Positions 12,828 through 37,854 of a stretch of 64,000 nucleotides of DNA are shown here, in pieces; the first letter of the stretch is position 1; each line of letters begins with the position of its first letter. The position numbers and the translations under genes are program-made. Under the pieces are notes generated by a model. That model saw only the letters and a program-made list of their open reading frames with translations. It ran no database searches and was not told the origin of the DNA. This stretch comes from Agrobacterium vitis (lineage in GTDB: Bacteria; Pseudomonadota; Alphaproteobacteria; Rhizobiales; Rhizobiaceae), in contig NZ_CP146244.1 of the NCBI RefSeq assembly GCF_037039395.1, positions 62,001 through 126,000 on the forward strand. Direction: 5' to 3'.

Positions 12828-13140
12828 CTATGCTGCTGCACGGAAAAGCAAGTTGAGATGGTTGCGTGCCGGCCGTGCCAAACTCGATGTAAAAAGGGCG
12901 TTTGAGCCCCCGCGGGGGGCGTTCTGGACGAGTACCCCGCCGGATACTCGATGGCGTCAGTTTAATCATTGCAAATGAGGAGCTTGTCAGCAACTCTTGC
13001 TGGTAGAAGAGGCGATTCGGAGGTGCGCCAAACACGTAATTTGATTTAGTCTTTCGATCAAAGATCAAACTCTAGGGACGAAACCGATAAGATAAATCAG
13101 CTGTCGCTGACAGAGGATTTGGGGCGCAAACGGGGCAGAT
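12828..13140. promoter_or_regulatory. Intergenic region before the dpdE operon
   Basis: This 313-base gap should carry the promoter of the eight-gene dpdE-dpdD operon. The only ordered element I see is TTTGAT (13040-13045) facing two direct ATCAAA words (13057-13062 and 13064-13069), a possible operator. There is also a GC-rich patch near 12905-12925 (GAGCCCCCGCGGGGGGCG) that could fold. No confident -35/-10 pair was found. Confidence 0.35.
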
Positions 13141-16100
13141 GTGTTTGTAAGGGCAATCGAGGGAGAGTTTGCCGAGTTAGGGATCGGAAAGTTAATTGAC
13201 CGAAGAGGGCAGACTGCGCTCGTCGAGTATTTTGACTCGCCCAACAGTGAAACTCATGTCCATTCGATGGACGTTGAGCTTGTAGCACCAGTTGCGCTAC
13301 CTGAGCAGACGCGCATTTACTATTTTAGCAAGGCGACGGCAGCCTGGGAAATTGGCCGCGTTCTCGATGACCAAGGTGAATTCCTCTACGTCAAGTTTCC
13401 CAATGGGATAGACAGGCGCTTAAGACCTTTGGAAGCATTCGTCAGATGGGCAAAGCCGATTTCTGACCCCACGGCCTTCCTGGCAGCGAGGATTAACGAG
13501 ACGCCCCGGTTCTCGGCCGGGCGTAGCGGTTTTGTACGTTCGCTTGTGAGCCAACGAGGGGCCACTATCGGCATGTCGGCCGTTGCTTCTTCCGCCATCG
13601 AATTGGAGGCCCACCAGATCGAGGTGGTTCGCCGCGTGCTACAAGACCCGGTGCAACGCTACCTCCTTGCGGACGAGGTCGGGTTGGGCAAGACCATCGA
13701 AGCGGGAATGTTGATCCGCCAATGTCATCTTGACGCGCCCGATGTCCAAATTCTCGTGATCGTTCCGGATGCACTTGTTCAGCAATGGCGCATCGAACTG
13801 ACATCCAAATTTTTTCTCGGTCATTGTCTCGATCAATCGCTACACGTTGTTTCTTACTCCAACGTCGACCAAATCGTGGCTCTGCTCCCATCTCTCGCGA
13901 TGCTCGTTATTGACGAAGCCCATCACCTAACCGAGGACCGGGGACGTGGCGCTAACAGCTTGTACCCTGCAGTTGCGAAAGCAGCTCCGGCTATCGAACG
14001 GTTTATTCTCTTATCCGCGACGCCCGCCCTCCACAATGAACGTGGCTTTCTCGAAATGCTTCATCTGCTCGACCCCGACACCTATTCGCTCGATGACGTA
14101 CCGGGGTTTCGGCAGAGGGTTGTAAACAGGCAGGCACTCGCCGAGATTGTGGCTGGGCTTACACCCGACAACGCATTGTTCCTAGACGAACGCCTTGCCG
14201 AACTTGAAGAGTTCTTCCCCGATGATGAACTGCTTCATACGTACGCGCGGGAATTGTTATTAGTAACGAATGAAATGCCAACCGAGGACGATCCGAGGTT
14301 GATCTCGGCGATCAATGTGCTGAGGGCACATCTGAGTGAAGTCTATCGGCTTCATCGCCGCGTCCTCCGGCATCGGCGCAGCAGCGTCGGTGGCTTGACT
14401 CCTCATCGAGCAGGCGCCCACGTTATTGAATATCGATCGGAAGAAAGTGGTCGACTGTCTAACACCACCGAAGACTGGCGGTTTGAGGAGTCGGTGGCCT
14501 CTGCAGGCGATCCAACCGGCAAAATGCGACTCACTCGGTCATCGGCGTTTGCCAAGTTACTCGACCGTTCGTCTCAGTACGCTGCGAACGGCAACGGCGT
14601 TGTCGGATCGCTCGCTCGTCGACCGGAACTGGTCGGCAATATGGAAAAATTCGATCGCATTGCCGAGCAACTGAACAGTGACGCGCATTTTGAGGCGAGG
14701 CTTGATGCGCTGATAACGGGTATTCAGCCTATGCTTGTCCCCAAGCAGCAGGTGGTTGTCTTTTGCTCAGATGAAAGGACGGCTGATAAGCTTGCTAAAA
14801 GCCTGGAGGATCGTTTGAAAGCCCTGGTCTATCGCCATCACCCGGAGGACCGAGGGTGGCAGGCGTTCAACGACAATTCTGAACCCGCGATTTTGGTGTG
14901 TGATCAGCGCGCTGAGGAGGGACTCAACCTTCAAGGTGGACGCAAGATCGTGGTTCATTATGATCTTCCATTTAATCCAAATCGCGTAGAGCAAAGGTTG
15001 GGTCGTGTCGATAGATACGGTTCAGGAGATGCAATTCGATCAGTTGTTCTTAATTGTCTCGATAATGCGCTTGAAGGTGCGTGGCTGGGGTTCTTGGACA
15101 GGGGATTGGAGATTTTCAATCGCTCCGTTGCAAGCCTCCAGTATTTTATCGAGGACATGAACAGTGCGTTGGCTCACTCGCTGTTCGATGGTGGATTGGA
15201 CGCCTTGCTTGAATTGACGGAGGTGAGTGGCGGTAAAGACGGGCTTATCGCAAAAGAAATGCATAGTCTGAACCAACAGGATGCACTGGACGCACTTGGT
15301 GCCACGCCTTCGGAATTGCTGGACCAGTTATCGGACGTCGATGAGGATTGGGAGGTCCTGGAAGCGGAGGCTAGAAACTGGATAGAGACTACGCTCCAGT
15401 TTCATCGAACAGTCGAGCATGTTGGGGGAAGCCGCGACGCAAAGGGGTCGCCACCATTCCGCTATCAATACGCATCATCGGGCCGCGCCACGTTGGTACC
15501 CCTGGAGACATTCTACGCCCGATGCCAGTCGGCGGTTGATCGATCACAAGCTGCCGCACTGGCGAGGAAAATAAGAACCGTCCCACTCACGTTCCGGAGA
15601 AGAACAGCGCTCAGCCGGGCTGGGCAATCGATGGAAACGCGAATCCTTAGATATGGCGACCCCTTCATCAATGGGATGTGGTCGATTACACAGGCCGATG
15701 ACCGGGGCCGCTCTACTGCGTTGTGGCGCTACCTGCCGGGACACAAGAGCGATGGCCAAAGTAATCTGTTCTTTCGGTTTGATTATATCGTCGAGGCCGA
15801 TATTTCGGGCGCCACTGAGGTTCTCTTAGCGGCGTCCCGGATAACCCGGTCGTCGCAAGCGGCCGTCTTGCGACGCGGAGACATGGCGCTCCCGCCGTTT
15901 TTCTATACGGTCTGGCTTGACCGCGACCTCAACCTCGTCGAAGACGCCTCTATCCTGCGAAACCTTGAAGTCGACTATCGCCCTGAGCCGTCGGGAGATG
16001 GGGGACGTGATTTCAACCTGAACCCCAGACGATGGCACCAACTGGACCGTCTTGACATCCCCGAGCTTGGAAACTGGGCGGGTTTATGTATCGAGGCGCG

Positions 16101-16386
16101 GCGACGGAGTGAAGAACTACTGAGGACATCACCATCCTTCGTTCAAAAATTGGCGAGTGCGTTTAACCATGCTTCCGAAACTGACATCGGTCGAATTGGA
16201 CAGTTGGCAGCCAGGGCACAACGAAACGGTAGACCAGATGAGATTGCCGATCTCGCGTTGGAGCAGGCCCTGTCTGGCGCCTTGTTGGAAGGCATCGTCG
16301 CTCCTCGCATTCATGTGGATGCGGTACGCGCTTGTTTCTTAAGCGGCCTCGCTTCAGCAGCGTCAATATTGGATAAACCAGCATGA
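13141..16386 (+). CDS. dpdE: DpdE, SNF2/HepA-like helicase of the 7-deazaguanine-DNA system
   Basis: A 1081-residue superfamily 2 helicase. After an N-terminal SH3-like region (about 1-90) comes the Q-motif-like LEAHQIEVVRRVL, Walker A DEVGLGKTIEAG (about 177-188), DEAH box LVIDEAHHL (about 255) and LLSATP (about 292). The second RecA domain has VVVFCSDERTADKLAKSL, RAEEGLNLQGGRKIVVHYDL and PNRVEQRLGRVDRYG (about 612-626). This is the RapA/HepA type. It starts at a GTG (13141) with only GGGGC upstream, and its end overlaps dpdF (ATGA). In the known Dpd island the DpdD-K proteins are assigned to restriction of DNA lacking the modification. DpdE probably translocates on that DNA. Confidence 0.85.
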   Translation: MFVRAIEGEFAELGIGKLIDRRGQTALVEYFDSPNSETHVHSMDVELVAPVALPEQTRIYYFSKATAAWEIGRVLDDQGEFLYVKFPNGIDRRLRPLEAFVRWAKPISDPTAFLAARINETPRFSAGRSGFVRSLVSQRGATIGMSAVASSAIELEAHQIEVVRRVLQDPVQRYLLADEVGLGKTIEAGMLIRQCHLDAPDVQILVIVPDALVQQWRIELTSKFFLGHCLDQSLHVVSYSNVDQIVALLPSLAMLVIDEAHHLTEDRGRGANSLYPAVAKAAPAIERFILLSATPALHNERGFLEMLHLLDPDTYSLDDVPGFRQRVVNRQALAEIVAGLTPDNALFLDERLAELEEFFPDDELLHTYARELLLVTNEMPTEDDPRLISAINVLRAHLSEVYRLHRRVLRHRRSSVGGLTPHRAGAHVIEYRSEESGRLSNTTEDWRFEESVASAGDPTGKMRLTRSSAFAKLLDRSSQYAANGNGVVGSLARRPELVGNMEKFDRIAEQLNSDAHFEARLDALITGIQPMLVPKQQVVVFCSDERTADKLAKSLEDRLKALVYRHHPEDRGWQAFNDNSEPAILVCDQRAEEGLNLQGGRKIVVHYDLPFNPNRVEQRLGRVDRYGSGDAIRSVVLNCLDNALEGAWLGFLDRGLEIFNRSVASLQYFIEDMNSALAHSLFDGGLDALLELTEVSGGKDGLIAKEMHSLNQQDALDALGATPSELLDQLSDVDEDWEVLEAEARNWIETTLQFHRTVEHVGGSRDAKGSPPFRYQYASSGRATLVPLETFYARCQSAVDRSQAAALARKIRTVPLTFRRRTALSRAGQSMETRILRYGDPFINGMWSITQADDRGRSTALWRYLPGHKSDGQSNLFFRFDYIVEADISGATEVLLAASRITRSSQAAVLRRGDMALPPFFYTVWLDRDLNLVEDASILRNLEVDYRPEPSGDGGRDFNLNPRRWHQLDRLDIPELGNWAGLCIEARRRSEELLRTSPSFVQKLASAFNHASETDIGRIGQLAARAQRNGRPDEIADLALEQALSGALLEGIVAPRIHVDAVRACFLSGLASAASILDKPA

Positions 16387-18953
16387 ACGCCAAGCTCGAC
16401 TTTGACGTTCTATATGCAGTGCTGGACGAATGGCCTAACGCCGATTTGCCTACTGGTGCCCAAGATGGGCTCTTCGATCGCATCCTCCAGATCCTGACAG
16501 CTTGTCGAGCACAGGATAAATTGACGAACGATTTCATTAGCCTGCTTCGCCACGTTTTGAGGCGTCATACTCTTCAAGCGCAGATGACAGCGCGTTTGAG
16601 GGTCCCGGCTGTATCCATGTGGCCTTCTCGCGATCAATGGGCAAAATTCGGTGTTCGCGCCCAGAGAGTGGGAGTCGATCAATTTTTGATCGAGGCCCAT
16701 CCGTACGCTCCGTCATGGCTAAGCGATACCGATGTACCTATTTTCGAGGACTCGTTTGCAGAACGAGAAGTACGCCTCGATTGGCGGCGGCCGATAGATC
16801 CATTTCTCGAGCATGCCAGCAATTTTACTAGCTACACCTCGCCGGGACAACGTGAGGCCGTACGAAGCGCATTTCTTATGGCTCCGGGCGAAACGCTAAT
16901 TGTTTCGCTGCCGACCGGATCCGGTAAAAGCTTCGTGGCTCAGGCGCCAGTGCTTGTTCGCGGACTGGAGTCGGGACTTACGTTATGTGTCGTTCCGACG
17001 ACAGCGTTAGCGCTGGATCAAGCACGACAGACCAGGAAATTGATCAAAGATCGTCATCCACGCACCGACGTGCCCGAACTCGCGTGGCATGCTGGGCTTA
17101 CTGATGAGGAGAGAACAGAACTCAAGAGTGCGATCAGGCAGGGGCGGCAAGGAGTGCTCTATTGTTCTCCTGAGGCGGTAACCGGGGCGTTGCTTCCTGC
17201 CCTATACGATGCAGCAAGGGCCGGGTTCCTTGCGTATCTGATTATTGACGAGGCTCATCTTGTCAGCCAGTGGGGCGATGGATTTCGGCCTGCATTTCAG
17301 ATGCTTTCCGGGGTACGTCGCGGCTTACTCGAAGCCTGTGGCGGTGAGCGCTTTCGAACCATCTTGATGTCGGCGACCTTGACCCCGGAGACTGTCGGCA
17401 CGATCGACGCATTGTTTGGACCTGCGCGTACAACGCAAATGATTGCGTCAATCTATCTCCGGCCAGAGCCACAATATTGGATCCACCGCGAGTTGGACGA
17501 GCAAGCAAAGGTAGCCAAGATCCTCGACGCTGTTCGTCATGCTCCCAGGCCATTCATTCTTTACGTCACGAAGCGTGATGATGCCCGCGCATGGTTGAAG
17601 CGGCTGAGAGCAAACGGCTTTCTTCGCACCGAATCCTTTCATGGAGAGACGCGTGACGGCGAGCGACGGCAGATCATCGATATGTGGGCTGGTAACAAGC
17701 TGGACGGTATTGTGGCGACGTCCGCTTTTGGTGTTGGCATCGACAAGCAAGACGTTCGCACCATTATTCACGCGACGGTCCCCGAAACACTCGATCGCTT
17801 TTACCAGGAAGTCGGACGCGGCGGGCGCGACGGAAAGACATCAACGTCGCTGTTGATTTATTCAGAAGTCGATCGCGAGATAGCAGAACGATTGAGCGCG
17901 CCCTCCCTGATCAGCGAAGAATTGGGTTTTGAGCGATGGTCAGCCATGCTTGAGACGGCAAAGCCACTCAATCCGACGGGAAGCCTGCTCGAACTTAGTC
18001 TCGATGTCGTTCCTCCGCGTCTACACCAACAAACTGACTACAACGCAGCTTGGAATATGCGCACTTTGATCATGATGGCGCGAGCGAATATGATCGATCT
18101 AGGATCTCGTCCTCCGGAGGCTTTGGCCCGAGATGAAGGCGAGTTGGACGCGGCCTTCGATCTGCGAAATGAAGAACATTGGGCACAATATTTCCGGCAA
18201 ATCATCGTGAGCACAAACGAGTTCGCCCATCGTAGTAGGGAATTCTTTGACGCCCGCATAGCCGAAGAGCGGGGCAGATCGACGCGAGCAGCAGACGCGG
18301 GCAACGAACTCTTGGGCAGTCTCCTCCAAGGTTCGACGGAGGTCTCTAGCCTGCTTGATGATCTATATCGCAGCCACGCGCCCCGCCGCGCGATGATCGT
18401 ATCGCGCGCATGTGGAGGATGCCCAGCACATCGAGCGGCGGGGAGCGCCGACTTGTCGTATGCTGAGCCGGTCGCTCCAGGTATCGATCTATCCACTAAG
18501 CCCGACACTTCCGCTTTTGAAGGACGATTTCCGCACCTGAGTGTTCACGCCCCCATTCTCTTGCCGTTGTCCACACCCTTTGATCCAAGTCAGATCATCA
18601 AAGTACTCGGAGCACTCGTTGCAACATTTGGGATCCGCGAAATCAGTGTGTCTGACCGATTCCGCATGGAAACGCCGGCTTTGAATAGACTGCACACCCG
18701 GTCAGACAATGGAATTTTGTTATTGCAGTCGATGGACGAGGAACGCCAGCGCATGTCAGGTTTCAAGTTGGCGAGAGCGACCATCTTAGAAGAGGGGATG
18801 GCGGTGGAACCTATGCTTCTACTTGACCGACCGCTACATTTCCTCCTTTTGCCGGCGACAACGAAGGATCCGTTCCATCCTGAAAGGCGTCTTGTCGAAA
18901 CCGACAGGAACACAATTACATTCGACCAGTTCATGCTGGGTGCTCGCGCATGA
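16383..18953 (+). CDS. dpdF: DpdF, RecQ-like helicase
   Basis: An 856-residue DEAH helicase with RecQ-type motifs: YTSPGQREAVRSAF, Walker A LPTGSGKSF (about 175), LIIDEAHLVSQWGDGFRP (about 286, the RecQ aromatic-loop region), MSATL (about 329), ATSAFGVGIDKQDVRTIIHA and FYQEVGRGGRDG (about 470-480). A CGGCPAHR cluster late in the protein may bind zinc. The start overlaps dpdE (ATGA) and the end overlaps dpdG. It is very likely the DpdF component, acting with DpdE and DpdJ on unmodified DNA. Its individual biochemical role is not established. Confidence 0.85.
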   Translation: MNAKLDFDVLYAVLDEWPNADLPTGAQDGLFDRILQILTACRAQDKLTNDFISLLRHVLRRHTLQAQMTARLRVPAVSMWPSRDQWAKFGVRAQRVGVDQFLIEAHPYAPSWLSDTDVPIFEDSFAEREVRLDWRRPIDPFLEHASNFTSYTSPGQREAVRSAFLMAPGETLIVSLPTGSGKSFVAQAPVLVRGLESGLTLCVVPTTALALDQARQTRKLIKDRHPRTDVPELAWHAGLTDEERTELKSAIRQGRQGVLYCSPEAVTGALLPALYDAARAGFLAYLIIDEAHLVSQWGDGFRPAFQMLSGVRRGLLEACGGERFRTILMSATLTPETVGTIDALFGPARTTQMIASIYLRPEPQYWIHRELDEQAKVAKILDAVRHAPRPFILYVTKRDDARAWLKRLRANGFLRTESFHGETRDGERRQIIDMWAGNKLDGIVATSAFGVGIDKQDVRTIIHATVPETLDRFYQEVGRGGRDGKTSTSLLIYSEVDREIAERLSAPSLISEELGFERWSAMLETAKPLNPTGSLLELSLDVVPPRLHQQTDYNAAWNMRTLIMMARANMIDLGSRPPEALARDEGELDAAFDLRNEEHWAQYFRQIIVSTNEFAHRSREFFDARIAEERGRSTRAADAGNELLGSLLQGSTEVSSLLDDLYRSHAPRRAMIVSRACGGCPAHRAAGSADLSYAEPVAPGIDLSTKPDTSAFEGRFPHLSVHAPILLPLSTPFDPSQIIKVLGALVATFGIREISVSDRFRMETPALNRLHTRSDNGILLLQSMDEERQRMSGFKLARATILEEGMAVEPMLLLDRPLHFLLLPATTKDPFHPERRLVETDRNTITFDQFMLGARA

Positions 18954-19855
18954 GTATTTTAAACATGCCCAGTGACGGGCTCTTCAACGTCTTGATTGTC
19001 CTCGTAAGGGCACTGGTTCGCTTCGGTCCTAAATCGCGAGATGAACTCCTAGGGTCTTGTGGTGCAAATGTTTCTTCAATCGATCCGAAGCAATTGAATC
19101 AGACGCTAAACCGCTGGATGGAGCTCGGATTATTCGAACTTGAAGCGGATCAGGTTCGGCTGAATGAAGCCCACAGAAAAACTCTTGGCAAAATTCCAGA
19201 CCTGGCAGAACTGAAACTGCCAGGAATCATTCGATCCGTGGCGTTGAGACCAGAAAACAATCTTCGCTTTTGGGAATCTGAGGGCAATAGAAGCGCCGAC
19301 CTCAATCGAGGTCTTTCGTGGATACTGGCCCAAGACGTCTACTCGATCGACACCGGGTCTCATCAGCTAATACAGAAGCTGGAGAATGAGCAGATTGCGG
19401 ATTTATCAAAGCGCATCTTTCAAAATGATACGCGTTGGAACGGCCTCCGGACGTGGATGGTCTATCTCGGATTCGGCCGAACGGGGACCCGAGTGACGGT
19501 GGATCCAACTGTCGCAATCCGAGATGAATTGCCGCAAATCTTCAAACAAGACACAACCTTGTCGGCATCAGTTTTTCTTGATCGCGTGGGCGAGATCCTC
19601 CCTGTACTTGATGGTGGGAAATACCGCGTGGAAATGGAGGGCGTTCTCAATCCAGCGAGTTGGGCGGCCCCGGCAGAAAATCGGTTATCCACATCCCTGT
19701 CTCGCGCCATACAGCGTCTCGATCGCGAAGGTCTTATCGCAACAGAACAGAAAAGCGATAGCATCGACGGCGGCTTCACCTTGACGGGATATGGTGGTCG
19801 CCAGTGGCGAGACGTTACCCACATTCGACGTCTCCCTGAAAAAGGGGGCAAGTGA
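18950..19855 (+). CDS. dpdG: DpdG, Dpd system protein of unknown biochemical role
   Basis: A 301-residue protein placed between the RecQ-like helicase and the large ATPase, exactly where DpdG stands in Dpd islands. The N-terminal half has a winged-helix look (LLGSCGANVSSIDPKQLNQT, LNRWMELGLFELEADQVRL), and a second HTH-like segment occurs near the C-terminus (SRAIQRLDREGLIATEQ). No catalytic motif is visible. It overlaps dpdF by ATGA, and its stop shares a base with the dpdH ATG. It may bind DNA or recruit partners. Confidence 0.75.
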   Translation: MSILNMPSDGLFNVLIVLVRALVRFGPKSRDELLGSCGANVSSIDPKQLNQTLNRWMELGLFELEADQVRLNEAHRKTLGKIPDLAELKLPGIIRSVALRPENNLRFWESEGNRSADLNRGLSWILAQDVYSIDTGSHQLIQKLENEQIADLSKRIFQNDTRWNGLRTWMVYLGFGRTGTRVTVDPTVAIRDELPQIFKQDTTLSASVFLDRVGEILPVLDGGKYRVEMEGVLNPASWAAPAENRLSTSLSRAIQRLDREGLIATEQKSDSIDGGFTLTGYGGRQWRDVTHIRRLPEKGGK

Positions 19856-22800: not shown

Positions 22801-22974
22801 ACAATGATGTTTCTGAATCAGACCACCCAGTTGCTGTCAGCGTCTGAGATCAGCGTTTCGCGTGAAGAAGCGAACCGAAGTCAGTCTGATCCATCGGACG
22901 TCAGCCAAGAGATTGTTGCCATGCTCGAAAGTGTAGCAGGCATATACTCACAGGCAGAGGGAGAAGTGCGTTGA
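19855..22974 (+). CDS. dpdH: DpdH, large P-loop ATPase
   Basis: About 1039 residues. GTG at 19852 is immediately followed by ATG at 19855, giving TGATG overlap with dpdG; the ATG is preferred. The AAA/STAND-like P-loop is PITGPSGVGKSHIIRWLDA (about 75-90), and a Walker B-like strand is LVLLVEDFAALAGIQ (about 315). The long C-terminal half is helical and has no recognised catalytic motif. DpdH is one of the set assigned to restriction in Dpd islands. By its size and P-loop it probably couples ATP hydrolysis to target recognition or nuclease control. Confidence 0.8.
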   Translation: MLERYWPDAAAVNACIKNEAETADVSVLLAVHQPAPLIQRGAVSGNKTSGSEQDLLEAFLTDNVPTGALLMPITGPSGVGKSHIIRWLDAQLQRSAKRDQLHIIRIPKSASLRTVVELILEPLKGDPRYAKAREDMTRAVSEVNLAEAVVTFRAHLQNALTASRARMVTEVRENPERAHLKALIAHADKLPQLFSDGALEQHFSEKVLSRVVSRALGGRTEDQSDEDALPQFSVADLVLPETVAINQASRPVHDYYVRNIAGVEVEKLGAVVDLLNDAVDPAIGNLFQLQQSTGGITLQDIILAVREILLADNKDLVLLVEDFAALAGIQEVLLKVCIQEGERDGKKVRATMRTALALTDGYLSFRDTILTRAQREWVVGGRTQSDSEIKASVVEMVGAYLNAARWGEAELERRFNLKGDSQELHDWLPSWRDEDISESESEAVAAFGYNEKGDALFPFNRRAIEQLTVRHLTVGGNLLFNPRRIINEILRNTLLMRGTYLAGGFPPAGYEAMAPNAVLANWLRQTHQPEQISRRLAPLLVAWGGDPIDQNEIAHMHPAIFTTFNLPPPLELANIKFTPEPERPTVPKAVVVDTKSGSVKELIEPEVPEPEHPKITDLRSKLDAWSKGALLGQNEARDIRTALFELLKDAIDWPSLRMRSSDLRAAWINIPNAWGNPRSGPYLHVCEDQSDEYGTIRAGLIAAVRFANLNGRRWTYSEADDDYVAVAPIVDHLLGQLMPKLLNEAKAQSASLAKALLTQARIAGLSPSVRPSGPDVILEGMFSFTDLKSEAQPFEENWDSLRASALSMMRQRPAWVALQEELLARSASFQGTGNTPFAIDTVRLLDAFGEEAYGTEALDGLPEDVRVFLRPLAEARLWPQLTPVVQKLDNFKRQIADYVDANFDKSTFVADLQTIVMLLAKTGTAPSNGINLKEFEKQLLEFKQSAFVDLVGKINVITEADREQIPKLLNALGAIDLGLIGRTMMFLNQTTQLLSASEISVSREEANRSQSDPSDVSQEIVAMLESVAGIYSQAEGEVR

Positions 22975-28246: not shown

Positions 28247-28782
28247 ATTTCGAGACACGCCGGATCTTCAAGAGCGCCGTCACGAGCCAAAACCTAATCC
28301 GCGAATTGCTCCAATTGATGTTACTAGGAGAGCTCTTGGCACCCAGCGGCGAGCGGGCATGGATCGTCAGCCCTTGGATTAGCAATGTCATGCTTTTCGA
28401 CAACCGAGCGGGCGGCTTCTCATCCGTAAATCCTGAATGGGGAACACGTGAAATTCGTCTTATCGAAGTCGCTTGCGATTTGGCGGCGCGGGGAACGCCT
28501 CTCGGCATCGCGACCAGTTTCGATCAGCATAATGCACCCTTCATAAATGCCATTACTTCAGGTCTTCAGGAGGTGGGGCTTTCTGAGAACGTCGTCATAG
28601 TTCAGCGGGAGCATCTTCATACAAAGGGTGTCTTGCTCAAACGCGGGCTCCTGACCGGATCGATGAATCTTACATTCAGGGGGCTCGAGCTTAATGACGA
28701 AATGGTCGTATACGACACCAATACCAAGACGCTCGCAGAAGCCCGGCTCAATTTCGAATCATACGTCGGGGCCGGCAAATGA
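28243..28782 (+). CDS. dpdK: DpdK, phospholipase D-like protein
   Basis: A 179-residue protein with one PLD-type HKD half-site: HTKGVLLKRGLLTGSMNLTF (about 125-145), i.e. His-x-Lys followed by Gly-Ser-x-Asn. One site per chain implies a dimer, as in PLD-family nucleases such as Nuc and BfiI. It is the best candidate for the DNA-cutting activity of the system. The Asp of a classical HxKx4D is not present (HTKGVLL), so activity needs proof. The start overlaps dpdJ and the end overlaps dpdD (both ATGA). Confidence 0.82.
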   Translation: MNFETRRIFKSAVTSQNLIRELLQLMLLGELLAPSGERAWIVSPWISNVMLFDNRAGGFSSVNPEWGTREIRLIEVACDLAARGTPLGIATSFDQHNAPFINAITSGLQEVGLSENVVIVQREHLHTKGVLLKRGLLTGSMNLTFRGLELNDEMVVYDTNTKTLAEARLNFESYVGAGK

Positions 28783-31046: not shown

Positions 31047-31143
31047 CTTCACCTCGCGGTGCACTCGGATCTCTTTTCAGAGAAAAGTCCCCTCCGCGGG
31101 ATTTATGATCTGAAAGCCTGATCCTCGTATTGAGCTATTGCGA

Positions 31144-31707
31144 TCATGCCGGAAGAAGACCCAATTTGCGCTCGCGGTTCCGGATCCACAACAGGACCGG
31201 TAGTGCGGCGACTACCATGATGAACTTCCCAATCATTTGGCCTGCAACAAAATCAAGAGATCCGAAAGCAAGCCATAGGAATATCACGCTATCGACAACC
31301 AGACCGGCAACACTGCTCGCGAACGCCGCTTTTATTAGCCCCTTCCTTTGAAGAGGAGTGAATACAAATAGGTCGACAAACTCCGAGGTCAGGAAAGCGA
31401 CAGCGGAGGCAAATGCCAAGGCAGGTGCCGTAAATGTTGTCGACAGAAACGCACCAGCAATGATCGCGCCGATTGCCCAAATCAACCCAAGCCGCCGCTG
31501 GACTAAATCACGCAGCACAAGCGCGAGCCCAACCAGCAGAACCCCGCTTGGTGCCGTGATGCCGAAACCGACAGGGATGAGGCAAGGGCCTTCTGGCACG
31601 CAAACCGTGCCGACATGACCGATCATATAATTGGCGAGTGGGATGCAGGCGGCAAAGCCAACCAGAAATATCCCGCCCTCAATCCATTGCCTGTTGCGCG
31701 TCGTCAT
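31144..31707 (-). CDS. VUT family queuosine-precursor transporter (YhhQ type)
   Basis: A 187-residue membrane protein with about five to six hydrophobic segments (IFLVGFAACIPLANYMIG, APSGVLLVGLALVLRDLVQR, LIWAIGAIIAGAFLSTTFTA and others). The motif LRDLVQRRLG and the segment FLTSEFVDLFVF match VUT/YhhQ proteins, which import preQ0, preQ1 or queuine. The ATG at 31707 has AAGGAG 8-9 bases upstream; a GTG at 31725 would overlap queC. Located at the end of the que-dpd operon, it probably supplements preQ0 supply for DNA modification. Confidence 0.85.
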   Translation of the reverse strand: MTTRNRQWIEGGIFLVGFAACIPLANYMIGHVGTVCVPEGPCLIPVGFGITAPSGVLLVGLALVLRDLVQRRLGLIWAIGAIIAGAFLSTTFTAPALAFASAVAFLTSEFVDLFVFTPLQRKGLIKAAFASSVAGLVVDSVIFLWLAFGSLDFVAGQMIGKFIMVVAALPVLLWIRNRERKLGLLPA

Positions 31708-31721
31708 CCCGCCTCTCCTTG

Positions 31722-32423
31722 TCACACTTCTTCGGCGACGAATTTTTCGTAGCCTCTTGCCCGAAGATCACAGGCCGGGCATGTGCCACAGCCATAACCC
31801 CAATTATGAAACTCGCCTCGCTCGCCGAGATAGCAGGTGTGGCTATCTTTCACGACGATATCCACCAGCGCCCGGCCGCCCAAATCCTTGGCCAGTTGCC
31901 AGGTTTGGGCTTTGTCGATCCACATCAACGGTGTGTCGAGGACAAACCGCTTTTCCATTCCGATGTTGAGCGCCACCTGCAAGGCTTTGATCGTATCGTC
32001 ACGGCAGTCGGGATAGCCGGAATAATCCGTCTCGCACATTCCCCCGACGATATGCTTTAGGCCGCGACGATAGGCCAGGGCGGCTGCAAAGGTCAGAAAT
32101 ATCAAGTTTCGGCCCGGCACGAACGTGTTTGGAAGTCCGGATTCGGACATTTCGATCTGCATGCCGCTGGTCAGCGCCGTATCCGAGATCTCACCGAGTG
32201 CGGCCAGCGATATCGTGTGATCATCGCCAAGGCGATCTGCCCATACAGGATTGAGCGCACTCATTTGAGCGCGCAACGTGTCCCGGCATTCGAGCTCGAT
32301 CCGATGGCGCTGACCATAATCGAAACCAACGGTCTCCACGCGCTCGAAACGGTCGAGCGCCCAGGCAAGACAAGTCGTTGAATCTTGGCCGCCCGAAAAT
32401 AGCACCAGTGCAGTCGTCGACAT
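31722..32423 (-). CDS. queC: QueC, 7-cyano-7-deazaguanine (preQ0) synthase
   Basis: An ATP-dependent enzyme converting 7-carboxy-7-deazaguanine to preQ0; 233 residues. The start at 32423 has AAGGAG upstream and gives [20 protein letters not shown], placing the SGGQDS PP-loop at the N-terminus as usual; an ATG-like start at 32450 would only add an unconserved lead. The zinc-binding cysteines lie near the end: [20 protein letters not shown] followed by AC. It is the third enzyme of a queE-queD-queC set embedded in the dpd operon, dedicating preQ0 synthesis to DNA modification. A second housekeeping copy for tRNA queuosine is expected elsewhere. Confidence 0.93.
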
Positions 32424-32436
32424 CGCCCGGCTCCTT

Positions 32437-32793
32437 TTAGTTGCCTTCAAATTCCGCCCAGCAGGATGGCGTTTCGAATACCTTCACGGAATTCAACTCG
32501 TCGATGAGCGGCTTGACCTTCTGCCAAATCCAGACAGCGATATTCTCCGCCGTCGGGTTCTCGAGGCCGTCAATATCGTTGAGTGTATGATGATCGAGGC
32601 TCTCAAGAACCGGCCCGAAGACCTTCTCCACATCAAAGAAGTCGATCACAAATCCAGTTTGTGGATCGACGACGCCTTTGAGTTGCAACTCGACCCGATA
32701 AGAATGTCCATGCATGCGATGGCATTTGTGCGTTTTGGGCACATTCGGAAGTCTGTGGGCCGCCTCGAATGTAAAAGCTTGTGTGATTTTCAT
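32437..32793 (-). CDS. queD: QueD, 6-carboxy-5,6,7,8-tetrahydropterin synthase
   Basis: A 118-residue PTPS-family enzyme making 6-carboxytetrahydropterin from dihydroneopterin triphosphate. Zinc histidines and the catalytic cysteine are in [20 protein letters not shown] followed by [17 protein letters not shown] carries the catalytic His/Asp region, and [11 protein letters not shown] the conserved substrate Glu region. The start overlaps queE (ATGA). Its stop lies 13 bases before the queC start. Confidence 0.93.
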
Positions 32794-33422
32794 GGGATCC
32801 CGATCATTTTGTGTGTCTGCAGGCTGAGCCGCCAGCGGGGGTTTTCAAGACAAAATGCCGTCACCGCCGCGATATTCTCGATCTGATCTGGCCCGTCCAT
32901 CGGCTGCAGGAAATAATGCTCGAAGGCGACGTCGGGGAGATCGTCCGGTAGCAATTTCGCCTGAGGATAAACCAGTTTCAGTTCGCTCCCGGATTTGAGA
33001 GTGAATGGCGCGCCGGCCTTCGGACTGACGCAGATCCAATCGATGCCCTTTGGCGGTTCGATTGTTCCATTCGTCTCGATTGCAATCTCGAAACCGTGTT
33101 CGTGGACCGCCGCAATCAGCGCATCATCGATTTGCAGAAGCGGTTCGCCGCCGGTGAAGACGACATAGCGCCTGCTCTCAACGCTCCCCCATGTCCGGGC
33201 GATCGCCGACGCAAGCTCGCCGGCGTCGCGAAACTTACCGCCGCCTTCGCCATCTGTCCCGATGAAGTCTGTGTCGCAGAACTGGCACACCGCCTTATGC
33301 CGGTCTTCCTCGCGACCGGTCCAAAGATTGCAACCAGCAAAACGGCAAAATACCGCGGCGCGGCCAGCTTGAGCACCTTCGCCCTGGAGCGTCTTGAACA
33401 ACTCCTTGACAGAATAGGTCAT
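32790..33422 (-). CDS. queE: QueE, 7-carboxy-7-deazaguanine synthase (radical SAM)
   Basis: A 210-residue radical SAM enzyme. The cluster-binding cysteines have the QueE spacing (CRFAGCNLW, then AVCQFCDTDF: C-x14-C-x2-C rather than the canonical CxxxCxxC). The N-terminus MTYSVKELFKTLQGEGAQAG and the VFTGGEPLLQ and ETNGT motifs are typical. It forms the 7-deazapurine ring from carboxytetrahydropterin. The start overlaps the end of the upstream DpdB-like gene by ATGA, so the pathway genes are co-translated with the insertion machinery. Confidence 0.93.
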   Translation of the reverse strand: MTYSVKELFKTLQGEGAQAGRAAVFCRFAGCNLWTGREEDRHKAVCQFCDTDFIGTDGEGGGKFRDAGELASAIARTWGSVESRRYVVFTGGEPLLQIDDALIAAVHEHGFEIAIETNGTIEPPKGIDWICVSPKAGAPFTLKSGSELKLVYPQAKLLPDDLPDVAFEHYFLQPMDGPDQIENIAAVTAFCLENPRWRLSLQTHKMIGIP

Positions 33423-34537
33423 GATAAGCTCACCAGTTTTTGCGGAACAGTCTCGGATAAATCGGTCGCCTGGCTACGGCGGCGCTTGATGTCAGCTCGA
33501 ACAATGCCAACCAAGTACTGCGCAAGCGTGACGATGTCGCGATTGACGTTCTGAACAGACTTCCAGTTCCGCTTGTCGGTTTCGCCGAAGTTCCATTCCC
33601 CCGACGTCCAGGCCGTGTTGTCGATCAGGCAGGCGAGGCCCTTGGAAAACTCATCTGACGTTCTCGCCCCGTCGAGCAACGCCAAGAGTTCCATGACATA
33701 GCCAAGCGACATGATGCCTGCGCCATGCACGAGCCGAGAGGTCTTCGGCGTATGATCGACCCATTCTTTTCGGAAAACGTATTGAACAGCGCCATAAAAG
33801 TCACTGATCAGTTTGAAGCAGAGGTCAGCGCCATCGGGCTCGCGAATGAGTTCGCGCATCACGCCGTCGCTCAATGAATTGATGATCACACGCTGGATTG
33901 CGGTATCCCTGATAATGCCGGTGGGATTGGTGTGCTGATACACCTGCCCCTTAAGCAGCGACTTTTCGTCGTAGTTCAAGCGCGCGGCGATCTCTGCGGC
34001 AACGGAGCGGTCGCCAAGGCGTCGCGGCAGGCCGGTAACGGTTGGCAGCAGTTCGTAGATCAGCGATTTCGGCAGGGGCCGAGTGTTGTTGATCAGCACG
34101 AACTGCCGACGGAGTTCTTCGTCGTCGCGGCAAATGATTGCGGACACGAAGACCTGGAAATCTTTCTCGTGAACCTGCCCGAGCGCTGTGAGGCGCTGTT
34201 GTCCGTCGACGACCATGCCGGGCGCGCCGGCGGCGATATCGATTTCGACCGTGCAGCGCCCGTCGGCGCTTTGGTCGAACACCTGGACGCTGTTGGTAAA
34301 AGCCACGACGATCGGGTTGGGCAAAATTGCTTCCGGTTTTTCTAGGTAGTCACGGATCTCACGAATATGACCGGCGATCTGTGGACGCTGAAAACCGCTC
34401 AGTGCACCTGCATCATCGCGCGCAACCCGCTCGATAACGGCAAACTTCTGGAGATCAGACGCTAGCGCTGCAAATGAAAGGACTGTGTGCGCTTCGCTCT
34501 GTCGGGCTCTGATCGCTTGGAATTTCAATGTTGTCAT
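33419..34537 (-). CDS. dpdB: DpdB-like DGQR-domain protein, copy 1
   Basis: A 372-residue member of the DndB/DpdB group, recognised by the ParB-like DGQR motif GMVVDGQQRLTALG (about residue 110). The frame starts at 34576, but MTTLKFQAIRARQSEAH at 34537 fits the family start. That start lies inside the end of dpdA, giving an 83-base overlap. DpdB works with DpdA to place preQ0 in DNA, possibly as an ATPase. The protein shares layout with the second copy at 35819-36943 (DGQQR, then FVLINNTRPLPKSLIYELLP and SRLVHGAGIMSLG), but the sequences are clearly divergent. Confidence 0.82.
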   Translation of the reverse strand: MTTLKFQAIRARQSEAHTVLSFAALASDLQKFAVIERVARDDAGALSGFQRPQIAGHIREIRDYLEKPEAILPNPIVVAFTNSVQVFDQSADGRCTVEIDIAAGAPGMVVDGQQRLTALGQVHEKDFQVFVSAIICRDDEELRRQFVLINNTRPLPKSLIYELLPTVTGLPRRLGDRSVAAEIAARLNYDEKSLLKGQVYQHTNPTGIIRDTAIQRVIINSLSDGVMRELIREPDGADLCFKLISDFYGAVQYVFRKEWVDHTPKTSRLVHGAGIMSLGYVMELLALLDGARTSDEFSKGLACLIDNTAWTSGEWNFGETDKRNWKSVQNVNRDIVTLAQYLVGIVRADIKRRRSQATDLSETVPQKLVSLS

Positions 34538-35822
34538 TTCGGCCACTATTGCTTGGGAGTTGGTCGACCAGGGCATCGTAGACGCCCAGATTGTGAATGC
34601 CGCGCCGCTTGTTGCGATTGCTCGCTCGAAAGATCACGACTTCGATCGAAAGCGCAGAACAGATAGGGCAGTTGCAACGCTTCCAAGGCCTGTCGCGAAG
34701 CGTTCGCTCGTAGCGCTCGCGGAGGTCCTTGACTGCTTTGGCGCCGGGTAACTCGTCGATCGTCGTCCCCATCACTGCAGGCGTGGTATAGGCCAGGACG
34801 CTGTCGAGCGTCTCGTCCAATTGCGCTTCGCCCTTATCGTAGGAACGCAGCGCCGCAAGCGCGGTTTTCTCCATGGAAACAAGGCGCTCCTGGTTGAGCG
34901 ACCCGCGCTTTGCAAGGCGCTGCAGCTTCGGGTTCTCAAGCGCCTGAGGCACGCGAATGGCTGTGTAATATTCGAGTTTGCCGCTCTTTGTCGGAAGAAA
35001 GTAGTTCGCCTTCGCATCCTTGAATGCGCGGATCAACGGCGACGTCGTGTCAAAGCTGGTGATGTTAAAAGAGCCAAAGGTATGGATCTCATCAGCTTTT
35101 GCAAAACCGAGAATATGAAGGCGGGTAGTTTGCGGAATGGCATCTCGGATCGCGATCAGGCAGGATTTGATCTGTGCCGCCTTCAGCGGAACGGTGCCGC
35201 CGAGTGCCAGATAATCGTAGCCCATCGCGACCAGACGGCGGGCGCCCTCGGCCATGCTGCCAGGGGACCAGCCCTGGATGACGCCCATCGGAGTGAAGCG
35301 GTTTGACATATGCTGCGTGGCAGTCCGAAAAGCGGCCGCATTCTCAAGCGTGATCTCAAAGCGCCGGCGTGCTTCTTCAGTGCCGCCTTCAAACCCGGTC
35401 AGGCTCTCGTCGAAGTCGAAAATGATATGGTCGACCGAGCAGCCATGGGTGAACCGCGCATCATCGTAAAATTCAGCCGTGTCCTCCGGTGTGTAGGGAG
35501 GCTTGTCTTCCTTATGATAGGTAAACGCCCCGCAATCGCCAAAGATAGGCAGATCTTCGAATGCTGGCTTGTCGAGGCGGAGAAACTCTCGCGCACCCAC
35601 CCGGCGGAAGCGCATTGACTGTGCTTCCGTATATTTTCCGCCCACTGCGGCGCCGCCGACGATGCCGCGGGAAACAAGCATGCCTTTGTACGGGGCGTAT
35701 CCCATGATTTCGTGCGGGTAAGCGTCATCCCAATAAGGCGTGCGGCCCTCCGAATAGCGGTCCCGGAGAAAGTCGTAACCGGGATCGACGTGATCGAGAC
35801 TGTCGGCAAAAATGAACTTCAT
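34455..35822 (-). CDS. dpdA: DpdA, DNA 7-deazaguanine transglycosylase
   Basis: A 455-residue relative of tRNA-guanine transglycosylase. It starts MKFIFADSLDHVDPGYDFLR, like DpdA rather than tRNA enzymes. The nucleophile region reads LPIFGDCGAFTY, with Asp where TGT has DSGGFQ, and IIFDFDE follows. The C-terminal zinc site is RCNCPIC with His about 28 residues on (RRGIHNLGVY), matching the C-x-C-x2-C-xn-H site of TGT. It exchanges guanine in DNA for preQ0. The start overlaps the second DpdB-like gene (ATGA), and the tail overlaps copy 1 by 83 bases. The last 35 or so residues after the zinc site are unusually polar and may exist only because of this overlap. Confidence 0.92.
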   Translation of the reverse strand: MKFIFADSLDHVDPGYDFLRDRYSEGRTPYWDDAYPHEIMGYAPYKGMLVSRGIVGGAAVGGKYTEAQSMRFRRVGAREFLRLDKPAFEDLPIFGDCGAFTYHKEDKPPYTPEDTAEFYDDARFTHGCSVDHIIFDFDESLTGFEGGTEEARRRFEITLENAAAFRTATQHMSNRFTPMGVIQGWSPGSMAEGARRLVAMGYDYLALGGTVPLKAAQIKSCLIAIRDAIPQTTRLHILGFAKADEIHTFGSFNITSFDTTSPLIRAFKDAKANYFLPTKSGKLEYYTAIRVPQALENPKLQRLAKRGSLNQERLVSMEKTALAALRSYDKGEAQLDETLDSVLAYTTPAVMGTTIDELPGAKAVKDLRERYERTLRDRPWKRCNCPICSALSIEVVIFRASNRNKRRGIHNLGVYDALVDQLPSNSGRNDNIEIPSDQSPTERSAHSPFICSASV

Positions 35823-36943
35823 CGTGTCGGCCTCGATAGCTTGCGGTCGAGTTGCATCAGGTGCTCGGCAAGCAGCCGATTATGCTGCGGCGTGCCCTGG
35901 ATCTCATTCCACTGGAGACCAAGCCCCTCCCAAGTTCCTTCCGTCCAGGCGCAAAGGGGTGCGATCCGGTGCAACGCCTCCCTGACTTCGGCCTCCGGCG
36001 TCGCAGAGCTATCGGCACGTAGCATCACCTGATCCATCAAAGCGCCCATTGCCTTGATGCCAGCAGAATGCATCAGCCGGCTTTCGGTCGGTTGCTTTCC
36101 CCAGGCTTCTTGAAAAACCTCGCGGACGCCTGACCAATAAAGGAATAGCGCCTCGTACATGGCATCAGGATTATAGGTCTCCGCCGTAAGTTTATACTGG
36201 TTTAGCGCGCCGTGTGGGGTCTTCAGGTTATGCTTAATCGCGTCAATCAAAGCGGTATCGTTGACGACGCCTTGCTCATTACCAGTATCGGAGGCGCGAC
36301 GGATCAGACGGTAAAAGGGCGATTTTTGTTGTCGATTGAGAAGGTTGCACAACTCGCTCGGGAGGCGATTGGCTGCCAGGTCCTTTGGTAACAGCGACCC
36401 CACCTCCGGGAGGAGTTCGTTGATCAGCCTGACGTCGAGGGCTTTGACCTTGTTGACCAGAATAAATTGTTCGCGATGGACCTGTACATCCTGAGAAACG
36501 AAGCCGACGACCGGAACCGGGAAGCGGCTATCCTTCGCTTTCGCGAGCGCCAAGGAGCGCTGCTGACCATCGACGATCCAAGCGGCACGTTCACCGGCCA
36601 TCCTGATCGGGATGTTCAGCGTTCCCGATTGGCCGACCTCGGTCAGCCCTTTCGGCTTCGGTCCGCGAGACACGTCAAACGTGACGTCGGAAGAAAGGGC
36701 GAGCGTGATGGCATTGGGAAAAAGAACCGGGCCGCTATCGAGAAACTCCGTGATCGCGTTCACATGGCTCCGGATTTCCTTACGTTGAAAACCCTTCAGG
36801 TCCTTCTCGTCACGATGAATCCGACTGATATCGGCAATCCGCGTGAGGTCCGAACCGTGGAGAAAGAAGGCGTAAACATCGACGCCGTCCCCTTGCTGGG
36901 TTTTGACCGCACGTATTATGAGCTTGTTCTCGTCAATACTCAT
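35819..36943 (-). CDS. dpdB: DpdB-like DGQR-domain protein, copy 2
   Basis: A 374-residue DndB/DpdB-type protein. The open frame reaches 37066, but MSIDENKLIIRAVKTQQGDG at 36943 overlaps the upstream stop by ATGA and is the sensible start. The DGQR motif is AAWIVDGQQRSLALAKA, and the family block FILVNKVKALDVRLINELLP aligns with FVLINNTRPLPKSLIYELLP of copy 1. SRLMHSAGIKAMG aligns with SRLVHGAGIMSLG. Either protein could be the true DpdB, or they may act as a heteromer. The pair flanks dpdA on both sides. Divergence suggests an old duplication or two recruitments. Confidence 0.82.
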   Translation of the reverse strand: MSIDENKLIIRAVKTQQGDGVDVYAFFLHGSDLTRIADISRIHRDEKDLKGFQRKEIRSHVNAITEFLDSGPVLFPNAITLALSSDVTFDVSRGPKPKGLTEVGQSGTLNIPIRMAGERAAWIVDGQQRSLALAKAKDSRFPVPVVGFVSQDVQVHREQFILVNKVKALDVRLINELLPEVGSLLPKDLAANRLPSELCNLLNRQQKSPFYRLIRRASDTGNEQGVVNDTALIDAIKHNLKTPHGALNQYKLTAETYNPDAMYEALFLYWSGVREVFQEAWGKQPTESRLMHSAGIKAMGALMDQVMLRADSSATPEAEVREALHRIAPLCAWTEGTWEGLGLQWNEIQGTPQHNRLLAEHLMQLDRKLSRPTR

Positions 36944-37854
36944 AGGGCTTGTTCTTTCCGGATCTCGGCCGCCAACTTTGCGAAGCGCTTTTGCTCGCAA
37001 GCGACGTTCAATTCGTCCCGCAATATCCGCAGGAGCTTGGTGGAACGGCCGCCGGCACGCGACCAATGATCACGAACGATAGATTTGAGCGCCGCGTCGG
37101 ACATTCGAGTGCCAGACTTCGTGGTCGGACGTGTCCATGTTGACATCGAGGCCTCAGCCAGGGCGCGGTGAATGTCGATTGATGCGACCGGAGCATTCAC
37201 CAGTATTTCTTCCGCGAAATGGCGAGTTGCACGGGAAGCAAAATCAGATTTTGTCCCCGGCAAGGAGCTGTCTGGGCCATCCAAGCGATCGTCATAGGGG
37301 AGCCGGAAGTGTTCAAGGCGCGGATCCAGATCCGGCACATCACGACCTCCGACAATTCTCAGCTTGCTGCAGAGTCCATCGGATAGAAGCGCCAGCGTCG
37401 GTGCGATCATGCGCAAATAAGGGGAGGGGAGTCCGACAACGACCACCGGGTCAGCTTGCTTGATCACGTGAAGGAGCGCTTCGCCGCCGCCTAGCGCCGC
37501 CCACCAGTCGGCTTCAGAGTATTCGCCATCGAGCTTGTTCATAACGCAGTCGGCGGCCCCCTTCGAGACCGTTAGGTTATAAGAAGGCACGTCGACGTCG
37601 CCCGGAACGAGGCCAAGGCCAGCCGAAACGATATAAAGATCAGCCTGGATGTTTTGGGCCCCTTTGACTGCCTCAGAGAAGGATCGGCCGCAATAAAGAT
37701 CCTTTGCTGGGCGGGTAACCTTAACTTGACTGAGGCGATCGGCCCAAGTCTCGATCACGTCCGAAAGCTTACCCTTGGGCAGATCTCTCGCAGAGAGCAA
37801 CGGGCTGTGGGAAACCCGCTTTCTCTGAGTGCAGGCGGTGAGAATTACGGTCAT
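36940..37854 (-). CDS. DpdC-like protein (candidate preQ0-to-amide converting enzyme)
   Basis: A 304-residue protein at the head of the modification operon. The start at 37854 (MTVILTACTQRKRVSHSPLL) is used rather than 37911. The N-terminal part resembles DUF6884-type and archaeosine-synthase-associated domains: ACTQRKR, then DLYCGRSFSEAVKG and LYIVSAGLGLVPGDVDVPSY. A second region, LLHVIKQADPVVVVGLPSPY, continues the fold. In Salmonella DpdC converts DNA-borne preQ0 to 7-amido-7-deazaguanine. Position in the operon and association with 7-deazapurine chemistry make that the best guess here. I cannot confirm family membership from memory, so the symbol is withheld. Confidence 0.6.
   Translation of the reverse strand: MTVILTACTQRKRVSHSPLLSARDLPKGKLSDVIETWADRLSQVKVTRPAKDLYCGRSFSEAVKGAQNIQADLYIVSAGLGLVPGDVDVPSYNLTVSKGAADCVMNKLDGEYSEADWWAALGGGEALLHVIKQADPVVVVGLPSPYLRMIAPTLALLSDGLCSKLRIVGGRDVPDLDPRLEHFRLPYDDRLDGPDSSLPGTKSDFASRATRHFAEEILVNAPVASIDIHRALAEASMSTWTRPTTKSGTRMSDAALKSIVRDHWSRAGGRSTKLLRILRDELNVACEQKRFAKLAAEIRKEQAL

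What the first reader, a model, noticed from the sequence alone, without database searches (positions are those of the whole stretch)
13141..37854. Complete Dpd 7-deazaguanine DNA modification-restriction system as two convergent operons
dpdE-F-G-H-I-J-K-D (plus strand) and dpdC-like, DpdB-like, dpdA, DpdB-like, queE, queD, queC, transporter (minus strand) meet tail to tail near 31046-31144. Nearly every junction in both operons is a 1-4 base overlap. The split separates modification plus precursor supply from the presumed restriction set, and dpdD is last rather than near dpdA-C. Few Dpd systems have been studied; this is a compact, apparently intact one.
Basis: partly seen in the sequence, partly recalled or inferred. 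Interest (0 to 1): 0.75.

Follow-up and report, generated by a model that had tools for sequence, protein, structure and literature searches.

The report
Twin mosaic Dpd DNA-marking defence systems
The window holds a complete known-type bacterial DNA-marking defence system, and the same genome carries a second complete one on another replicon; comparison with relatives shows that the "mark" genes and the "attack" genes are swapped between such systems, which gives a way to test what the attack half actually recognises.

Summary
Confirmed and extended. All 16 genes match Dpd or preQ0-supply families. Two convergent operons with dpdD last is ordinary: 18 of 66 named loci and an Enterobacter plasmid show it. 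The two DpdB genes are old, separate orthogroups, each in 66 of 68 sources.

New here: the genome has a second complete, diverged Dpd system on a 207-kb repC contig. Dpd proteins are 46-77% identical between the two, but DNA from within queE through queC is 90-95% identical (dS 0.19-0.59 against 1.76 to saturation in the other 13 genes), so it was exchanged recently. Near-identical modification operons sit beside different restriction cassettes (DpdA 99%, DpdJ 27%), and similar restriction cassettes beside different modification operons (DpdJ 88%, DpdA 52%). Over 16 loci restriction type shows no signal on the DpdA tree (8 changes; shuffles 8.05, sd 0.97).

New member of a known kind; twin carriage and cassette reassortment are the interest. 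No modified base or restriction was shown.

The parts
13141..16386 (+). dpdE, SNF2-like helicase (1081 aa)
   Evidence: NCBIfam NF041062 999.5 bits, PADLOC DpdE; Walker A EVGLGKT and DEAH present
16383..18953 (+). dpdF, RecQ-like helicase (856 aa)
   Evidence: NF041063 898.2 bits; PTGSGKS and DEAH
18950..19855 (+). dpdG (301 aa)
   Evidence: NF041064 305.6 bits
19852..22974 (+). dpdH, AAA ATPase (1040 aa)
   Evidence: NF041065 826.3 bits; GPSGVGKS
22971..23696 (+). dpdI, divergent (241 aa)
   Evidence: NF041066 117.7 bits, below cut-off 150; PADLOC 38.3 bits; 46.6% identical to the C3 copy in the same position
23693..28246 (+). dpdJ, YprA-type helicase (1517 aa)
   Evidence: NF041067 1833.7 bits; GTGSGKT, DEVH
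28243..28782 (+). dpdK, PLD-like nuclease candidate (179 aa)
   Evidence: NF041068 191.5 bits, PLDc_2; HxK and GSMN kept, no Asp at the HxKx4D place in window or 9 other DpdK; L016 and L017 have an Asp one residue later
28779..31046 (+). dpdD, last gene of the restriction operon (755 aa)
   Evidence: NF041061 562.6 bits; predicted helical repeat with a C-terminal alpha/beta domain, pLDDT 79.7, pTM 0.45
31047..31143 (.). 97-base gap between the two convergent operons
   Evidence: sequence
31144..31725 (-). queuosine-precursor transporter (VUT/QPTR type)
   Evidence: Pfam Vut_1 41.3 bits; NCBIfam below cut-off
31722..32450 (-). queC
   Evidence: TIGR00364 208.1 bits
32437..32793 (-). queD
   Evidence: TIGR03367 104.8 bits
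32790..33422 (-). queE (Cx14CxxC radical SAM)
   Evidence: TIGR04508 352.9 bits
31800..33250 (-). recombination tract queE(3' part)-queD-queC, 90-95% DNA identity with the second system of the same genome; edges approximate
   Evidence: window identity, dS, tree
33419..34537 (-). dpdB2, DGQHR/ParB-like protein (372 aa from the conserved ATG); overlaps dpdA by 83 bases
   Evidence: NF041060 389.3 bits; start and overlap
34455..35822 (-). dpdA, DNA-guanine transglycosylase (455 aa)
   Evidence: NF041059 561.9 bits; PDB 7ui4; Cys cluster CNCPIC
35819..36943 (-). dpdB1, DGQHR/ParB-like protein (374 aa)
   Evidence: NF041060 442.5 bits; start
36940..37854 (-). dpdC (304 aa)
   Evidence: PADLOC DpdC 323.2 bits, DUF6884

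Best explanation
This is a complete Dpd restriction-modification system on a 1.23-Mb RepC-bearing contig of a bacterium of (by inference from its relatives) the Rhizobiaceae, one of two complete Dpd systems in that genome, and a mosaic. Likely working: QueD-QueE-QueC make preQ0 (the transporter imports precursor); DpdA, helped by DpdB1 and DpdB2, swaps guanine in DNA for preQ0; DpdC turns it into the amido form (ADG); the DpdE-K plus D set (three helicases, an AAA ATPase, a PLD-type nuclease candidate) attacks DNA without the mark. Shown: gene content, order, intact frames and motifs, the second system, the recombination tracts, and the absence of linkage between modification lineage and restriction cassette in 16 loci. 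Inferred from studied relatives: the chemistry and the restriction. Inferred here, at lower odds (about 0.3-0.4): because cassettes reassort, the restriction half reads the mark (or a mark pattern common to these cassettes) rather than its own DpdA-B partner, so the two systems can protect against each other's attack; and the two DpdB proteins act as one mixed complex. The confidence given is for the Dpd identity, the twin carriage and the mosaic.
For: Family matches over curated cut-offs and PADLOC. DpdA matches 7ui4, deposited as DNA-guanine transglycosylase. Second system: tblastn of the 16 window proteins hits C3 in the same two-operon layout, 45.6-96.6% identity; DpdA and DpdJ over cut-off with no stops; C3 and C4 each carry their own RepC; an IS copy 99.9% identical over 1316 bases lies in the window (53741-55056) and between the two C3 operons, so both replicons probably share a cell. 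Mosaic: DNA identity window against C3 is 47-77% from dpdC to dpdB2, 90-95% from within queE to queC, 73-79% in the transporter; dS queC 0.19, queD 0.35, queE 0.59, the other 13 genes 1.76 or more or saturated; block trees conflict ({win, L016} 100/99 in dpdC-dpdB1 but AU p 2e-24 in dpdA-dpdB2; {win, ownC3, L019, L021, L011, L012, L013} 100/100 in queE-D-C but p 2e-7 in dpdA-dpdB2). Cassette swap. Dedicated precursor genes: the genome has another queC-queD-queE run on C2, 27-37% identical, and a Tgt there.
Against: No chemistry or restriction was measured. DpdI is under its curated cut-off, DpdC has no NCBIfam match, the transporter is under its NCBIfam cut-off. DpdK lacks the Asp of the HKD motif. 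Two similar modification operons could mark the same sites, in which case the free pairing says nothing on what restriction senses. The restriction-type count rests on 16 loci chosen for DpdA likeness; type T3 is broad (DpdJ 47-93% within it), and with 16 loci and 4 types the test has little power to see a weak signal. DpdJ alone rejects {win, L011} only at p 0.009, with a long branch in play. The window's restriction cassette has no close DNA relative in hand, so selection on it could not be measured.
Confidence: 0.85

Rival explanations
1. The two systems have different sequence specificities and are fully independent; each restriction cassette only works with a modification cassette that marks its own sites, and the swaps seen are between cassettes of equal specificity.
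For: dpdC, dpdB1 and most restriction genes differ most between the two systems, and 5' dpdB1 plus dpdC is itself an exchange block, as specificity parts in other systems are (recalled, no call).
Against: One modification core (DpdA 96-99%) pairs with three restriction types, which is hard to keep up if matching is needed, unless all cores mark the same sites.
Confidence: 0.35
2. The modification operon is kept for its own sake (for instance as protection from other restriction enzymes), and the restriction cassettes are loosely attached extras.
For: Modification operons with no dpdD-K relative found in the stretch fetched: L015b, the S. americanum plasmid and G794a; PMC11888242 also reports islands lacking the restriction operon (section read).
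Against: The window, C3 and 14 other loci have restriction genes in the same stretch; restriction frames are open in window and C3.
Confidence: 0.2
3. The second system is an assembly mixture, not a resident of the same cell.
For: Contamination estimate 2.35%.
Against: An IS copy 99.9% identical on both contigs; 5 contigs only, four of them with a RepC, which fits a rhizobial multi-replicon genome (recalled).
Confidence: 0.04
4. queE-queD-queC look alike only because they are under strong constraint.
For: They are conserved enzymes.
Against: Synonymous divergence is also low (0.19-0.59 against 1.76 to saturation in the other genes), with edges inside queE and near the transporter.
Confidence: 0.02

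Closest known systems
Dpd (7-deazapurine in DNA) systems, such as that of Salmonella Montevideo
   Same: dpdA-K gene set, TGT-derived DpdA, DGQHR DpdB, DpdC, restriction genes
   Different: two DpdB orthogroups around dpdA, own queE-queD-queC and transporter in the operon, a second complete system in the same genome; DpdI divergent. The main Montevideo papers were not held here; the comparison is with family models and passages of PMC11888242.
Dpd of Enterobacter cloacae plasmid pPOL9A (NZ_CP086409)
   Same: dpdA-dpdB then convergent dpdD-dpdK-dpdJ-(hypothetical)-dpdH
   Different: one DpdB and no que genes found in the stretch; DpdA 44.7% identical
Dnd/Ssp phosphorothioate systems
   Same: modification module described as commonly decoupled from DndFGH and linked to other nucleases (PMC10853773, passages); Dnd and Ssp systems shown compatible in one cell (PMC10470545, passages); both DpdB match Pfam DndB
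   Different: backbone sulfur, different enzymes
DISARM, Druantia and other YprA-helicase systems
   Same: DpdJ is a YprA-family helicase with an associated PLD nuclease (PMC12458937, passages)
   Different: no base-exchange enzyme in DISARM or Druantia as described there

Membership tests
Dpd system | DpdA of the DNA-guanine transglycosylase kind, not a tRNA Tgt | tested here: met
   NF041059 561.9 against 200; only PDB sequence match 7ui4; below Pfam TGT cut-off. No tree against tRNA enzymes was made.
Dpd system | DpdB | tested here: met
   two copies, 389.3 and 442.5 against 300; DGQQR in both
Dpd system | DpdC | tested here: met
   PADLOC 323.2 bits; DUF6884 31.0 against 30; no NCBIfam match
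Dpd system | restriction set DpdD-DpdH, DpdJ, DpdK | tested here: met
   7 of 7 over NCBIfam cut-off
Dpd system | DpdI | tested here: inconclusive
   117.7 against 150; PADLOC 38.3 bits
Dpd system | preQ0 supply encoded nearby (frequent, not obligatory) | tested here: met
   QueC, QueD, QueE over cut-off
Dpd system | dPreQ0 or dADG in DNA | not testable with these tools
   needs mass spectrometry
Dpd system | restriction of unmodified DNA | not testable with these tools
   needs transformation or phage assay
PLD nuclease (DpdK) | HxKxxxxD motif | tested here: not met
   HxK and GSMN present, no Asp at that place in the window or 9 other DpdK; L016 and L017 have an Asp one residue later. DpdK membership is met; catalysis is not shown.

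The most novel reading that the evidence does not exclude
Dpd restriction cassettes read the 7-deazaguanine mark itself and not the sequence or the partner that placed it, so any modification cassette licenses any restriction cassette; replicon-borne systems that meet in one cell protect each other and trade parts by homologous recombination, as through their shared queE-queD-queC, and this genome is caught with two complete systems.
Probability: 0.3. Interest if true: 0.72.

Novelty: new member of a known kind. Interest (0 to 1): 0.52.

Why it matters
What a Dpd restriction complex senses is open; [quoted passage not shown] Nature has made the swap experiment: one DpdA-DpdB2 core (DpdA 96-99%) with three different restriction cassettes, and one genome with two complete systems. 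Deleting one modification operon in that strain asks the question directly. If cross-protection holds, these systems behave as exchangeable cassettes, much as has been argued for phosphorothioation.

Tried and rejected

One DpdB degenerate: not supported; both keep DGQQR (frequency 1.00 at each position in 66 DpdB1, 0.98-1.00 in 66 DpdB2). Of 68 sources, L071 gave neither DpdB over 250 bits, L033 no DpdB1 and L050 no DpdB2.

Regulatory RNA or tRNA: none found in the window. Promoter and terminator scans of 12000-31900 were at shuffle level (13 against 10.5; 20 against 22.1).

Dual carriage as a trend: 10 of 394 family genomes match DpdA, 8 over cut-off, 2 of these 8 twice, but the window's genome was in by design. 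Of the genomes behind 28 of the 66 named loci, 2 have two DpdA over cut-off. By equal contig lengths six of the eight recur in the 28, so the union is 30 genomes with 3 dual carriers; only the window's genome showed two complete systems in what was fetched. No enrichment is claimed.

Rows dropped: the type count used 16 loci (window, C3 and 14 of the 66 named loci, G794b being the contig of L056). L015b, S. americanum and G794a (no restriction relatives found near) were unlabelled, G165 (a further cassette type) was left out, and 52 of the 66 named loci were not used, mostly with only about 10 kb of flank in hand. L011 is a MAG whose dpdF and dpdJ appear in several frames. AU tests used groups suggested by the identity table and by other blocks, so they were not named blind; DpdE and DpdJ trees carried long-branch warnings. 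In the transporter block 2 of 6 groupings were rejected (p 0.002, 4e-5) and 4 were not (p 0.08-0.48); in queE-D-C {ownC3, L019} was not rejected (p 0.33). The middle of the output was cut. The DpdB tree is a quick one with 22 rows of each kind and long-branch warnings. An order-wide DpdJ search (397 genomes) had only the window's genome over cut-off.

Literature: 8 searches over openly licensed PMC papers; in the listings and the passages I opened (PMC11888242, PMC12839542, PMC12458937, PMC10853773, PMC10470545, PMC6884629, PMC12707154) I saw no report of two complete Dpd systems in one genome or of modification and restriction cassettes reassorting. PMC11888242 reports extra dpdB copies (n=801) and variable dpdD-K content. 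Three key Dpd papers (PMC10164549, PMC10966956, PMC6207457) are not held, so absence from print is not claimed.
Full report
What is there. The 16 genes of the finding were scanned against PADLOC, Pfam and NCBIfam. Seven restriction proteins pass the curated NCBIfam cut-off by wide margins; DpdI does not (117.7 against 150) but is in place and hit by PADLOC. DpdA, both DpdB, QueC, QueD and QueE pass theirs; DpdC is supported by PADLOC and a marginal Pfam match; the transporter by Pfam only. Of 14 junctions within the two operons 12 overlap by exactly 4 bases; the exceptions are queD/queC (14, start uncertain) and dpdA/dpdB2 (83). An ATG giving the 83-base overlap is present in 14 of 17 loci; it is 4 bases in the three loci with distant DpdA. 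The S. americanum record annotates the same 83-base overlap.

Is DpdA a DNA enzyme? Its only match among PDB sequences at E 0.001 is 7ui4, named DNA-guanine transglycosylase (339 bits, E 4e-100). A Tgt of 506.9 bits is a separate gene on C2, and a separate queC-queD-queE run lies on C2 with 27-37% identity to the Dpd copies. So the operon has dedicated precursor genes.

Ordinary features. The tail-to-tail layout with dpdD at the end: 18 of the 66 named loci fetched with DpdA show D-K-J on the opposite strand beyond the modification genes, within flanks of at most 10 kb, and an annotated Enterobacter plasmid with one dpdB does too. Order dpdC-dpdB1-dpdA-dpdB2 is nearly constant in these loci. 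DpdB1 and DpdB2 form two clades (22 rows each, one change, SH-aLRT 99-100, one single-DpdB outgroup; quick tree), each with its own invariant residues and both with DGQQR. Extra dpdB copies are on record (n=801, PMC11888242, section read); that they are two fixed orthogroups in this set is my result. A mixed DpdB1-DpdB2 complex is inference.

A second system. A DpdA search of the window's own genome (6.04 Mb, 5 contigs) gave two matches of nearly equal score (563 and 561.8 bits), one on C4 (the window) and one on C3, 206,864 bases. The 16 window proteins find partners on C3 in the same two-operon layout: dpdC 45.6, dpdB1 58.0, dpdA 77.1, dpdB2 75.7, queE 92.4, queD 96.6, queC 95.5, transporter 81.7, dpdD 54.2, dpdK 76.7, dpdJ 66.7, dpdI 46.6, dpdH 55.5, dpdG 53.6, dpdF 59.7, dpdE 52.3% identity. 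Between the C3 operons lie about 7.5 kb with two more genes and IS elements; one IS is 99.9% identical over 1316 bases to an IS at window 53741-55056, which argues for residence in one cell. C3, C4, C1 and C5 each carry a RepC gene, so both Dpd systems sit on RepC-bearing contigs and not on C2.

Recombination. Along the modification operon the DNA identity window/C3 is 47-50% in dpdC, 56-69% in dpdB1, 65-77% in dpdA-dpdB2, then 90-95% from inside queE to queC, then 73-79% in the transporter. Synonymous divergence shows the same (queC 0.19, queD 0.35, queE 0.59; transporter 1.76, dpdA 1.85, the rest 2.79 or more or saturated), so constraint is not the reason. Other exchanges: window and L016 share dpdC and 5' dpdB1 at 89-96% and fall to 67-85% afterwards; window and L021 are 60-67% in dpdC and 89-99% from the 3' end of dpdB1 to queC. 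Block trees conflict with strong support: {win, L016} is 100/99 in dpdC-dpdB1 and rejected in dpdA-dpdB2 (p 2e-24) and in queE-D-C (p 6e-61). The transporter block decides little.

Cassette swapping. Longer stretches of relatives were fetched and typed. Next to related modification operons lie: the window's cassette; a C3-type cassette of the same gene order (C3, L011, L015, L018, L019, L054; DpdJ 84-96% among them while DpdA is 52-95%); a second type (L016, L017, G794b; DpdJ 69-93%); and a third, broader one (L012, L013, L014, L020, L021, L058; DpdJ 47-93%) with a DpdJ over 2,000 aa, whose extra N-terminal part carries AAA_11/AAA_12 helicase domains in L012 and whose DpdF, DpdH and DpdJ are matched by PADLOC. 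Window and L021: DpdA 99%, DpdJ 27% over 774 columns. C3 and L054: DpdJ 88%, DpdA 52%. DpdA data reject the restriction grouping (p 1e-73), DpdE data reject {win, L011} (p 2e-46, long branches noted), DpdJ less strongly (p 0.009). Four cassette types on the 16-locus DpdA tree need 8 changes; 5000 shuffles give 8.05, sd 0.97, 66% of them at 8 or fewer. So in this set the restriction type does not follow DpdA descent detectably. The window's cassette is rare: DpdD has relatives at 97% and 87% and then none above 58% among the 120 listed of 213 matches, with 8000 candidates scored.

Dual carriers. Among 394 family genomes 8 have DpdA over cut-off, two of them twice. In both, the second copy has no dpdD-K relative in the stretch fetched (60 kb and 36 kb). 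The window's genome is the only one here with two complete systems.

Reading. The system works, most likely, as described for Dpd systems (PMC11888242 and PMC12839542, passages and one section: DpdA and DpdB put preQ0 into DNA, DpdC makes ADG, dpdD-K restrict). The free pairing of cassettes suggests that the restriction half reads the mark, or that these modification cassettes mark the same sites; the present data cannot separate the two. Decoupling is described for phosphorothioation (PMC10853773, passages), and Dnd and Ssp systems were found compatible (PMC10470545, passages).

Verdict.

Noticed in passing
G000:C3:23508-55667 (L004, L005): Second complete Dpd system in the same genome, with two extra genes and IS elements between its two operons.
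   Followed up: yes
window 53741-55056 and C3:32121-33436: IS copy 99.9% identical on two replicons, one copy inside the C3 Dpd locus.
   Followed up: partly
L198:24657-26313 (Sinorhizobium americanum plasmid), C3, L012-L015, L018, L019, L021, L015b, G794b: Two further genes after the transporter in many relatives, a ~300-aa protein without Pfam match and a HAD hydrolase; not found in the window, L011, L016, L017, L020, L054 and L058.
   Followed up: partly
L145:12527-18898 and L148:6983-9379: A Dpd-type restriction cassette with a 2124-aa DpdJ (L012) carrying an added N-terminal AAA_11/AAA_12 helicase part; in L013 a neighbouring 799-aa protein has no PADLOC or Pfam match.
   Followed up: partly
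L198:26925-28412 and L015b: Two modification-only loci have a further, weakly DndB-like protein (495 aa in L198; Pfam DndB 23.8 bits, below cut-off) on the other strand nearby.
   Followed up: no
window 34455-34537: 83-base dpdA/dpdB2 overlap kept in 14 of 17 loci; possible translational coupling or a shared-sequence constraint.
   Followed up: partly
window 38864-40987: 707-aa ORF right of the island with no Pfam match at E 1e-4.
   Followed up: no
window 12294-12827: 2'-5' RNA ligase/LigT-like gene directly left of the island; the left flank also carries peptide ABC transporter genes.
   Followed up: no
L147:6819-13217: Beside the third cassette type in L013 lie a BilD-like protein (PADLOC 542.8 bits) and a GajB-like UvrD helicase (216.1 bits), a likely defence neighbourhood.
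   Followed up: no
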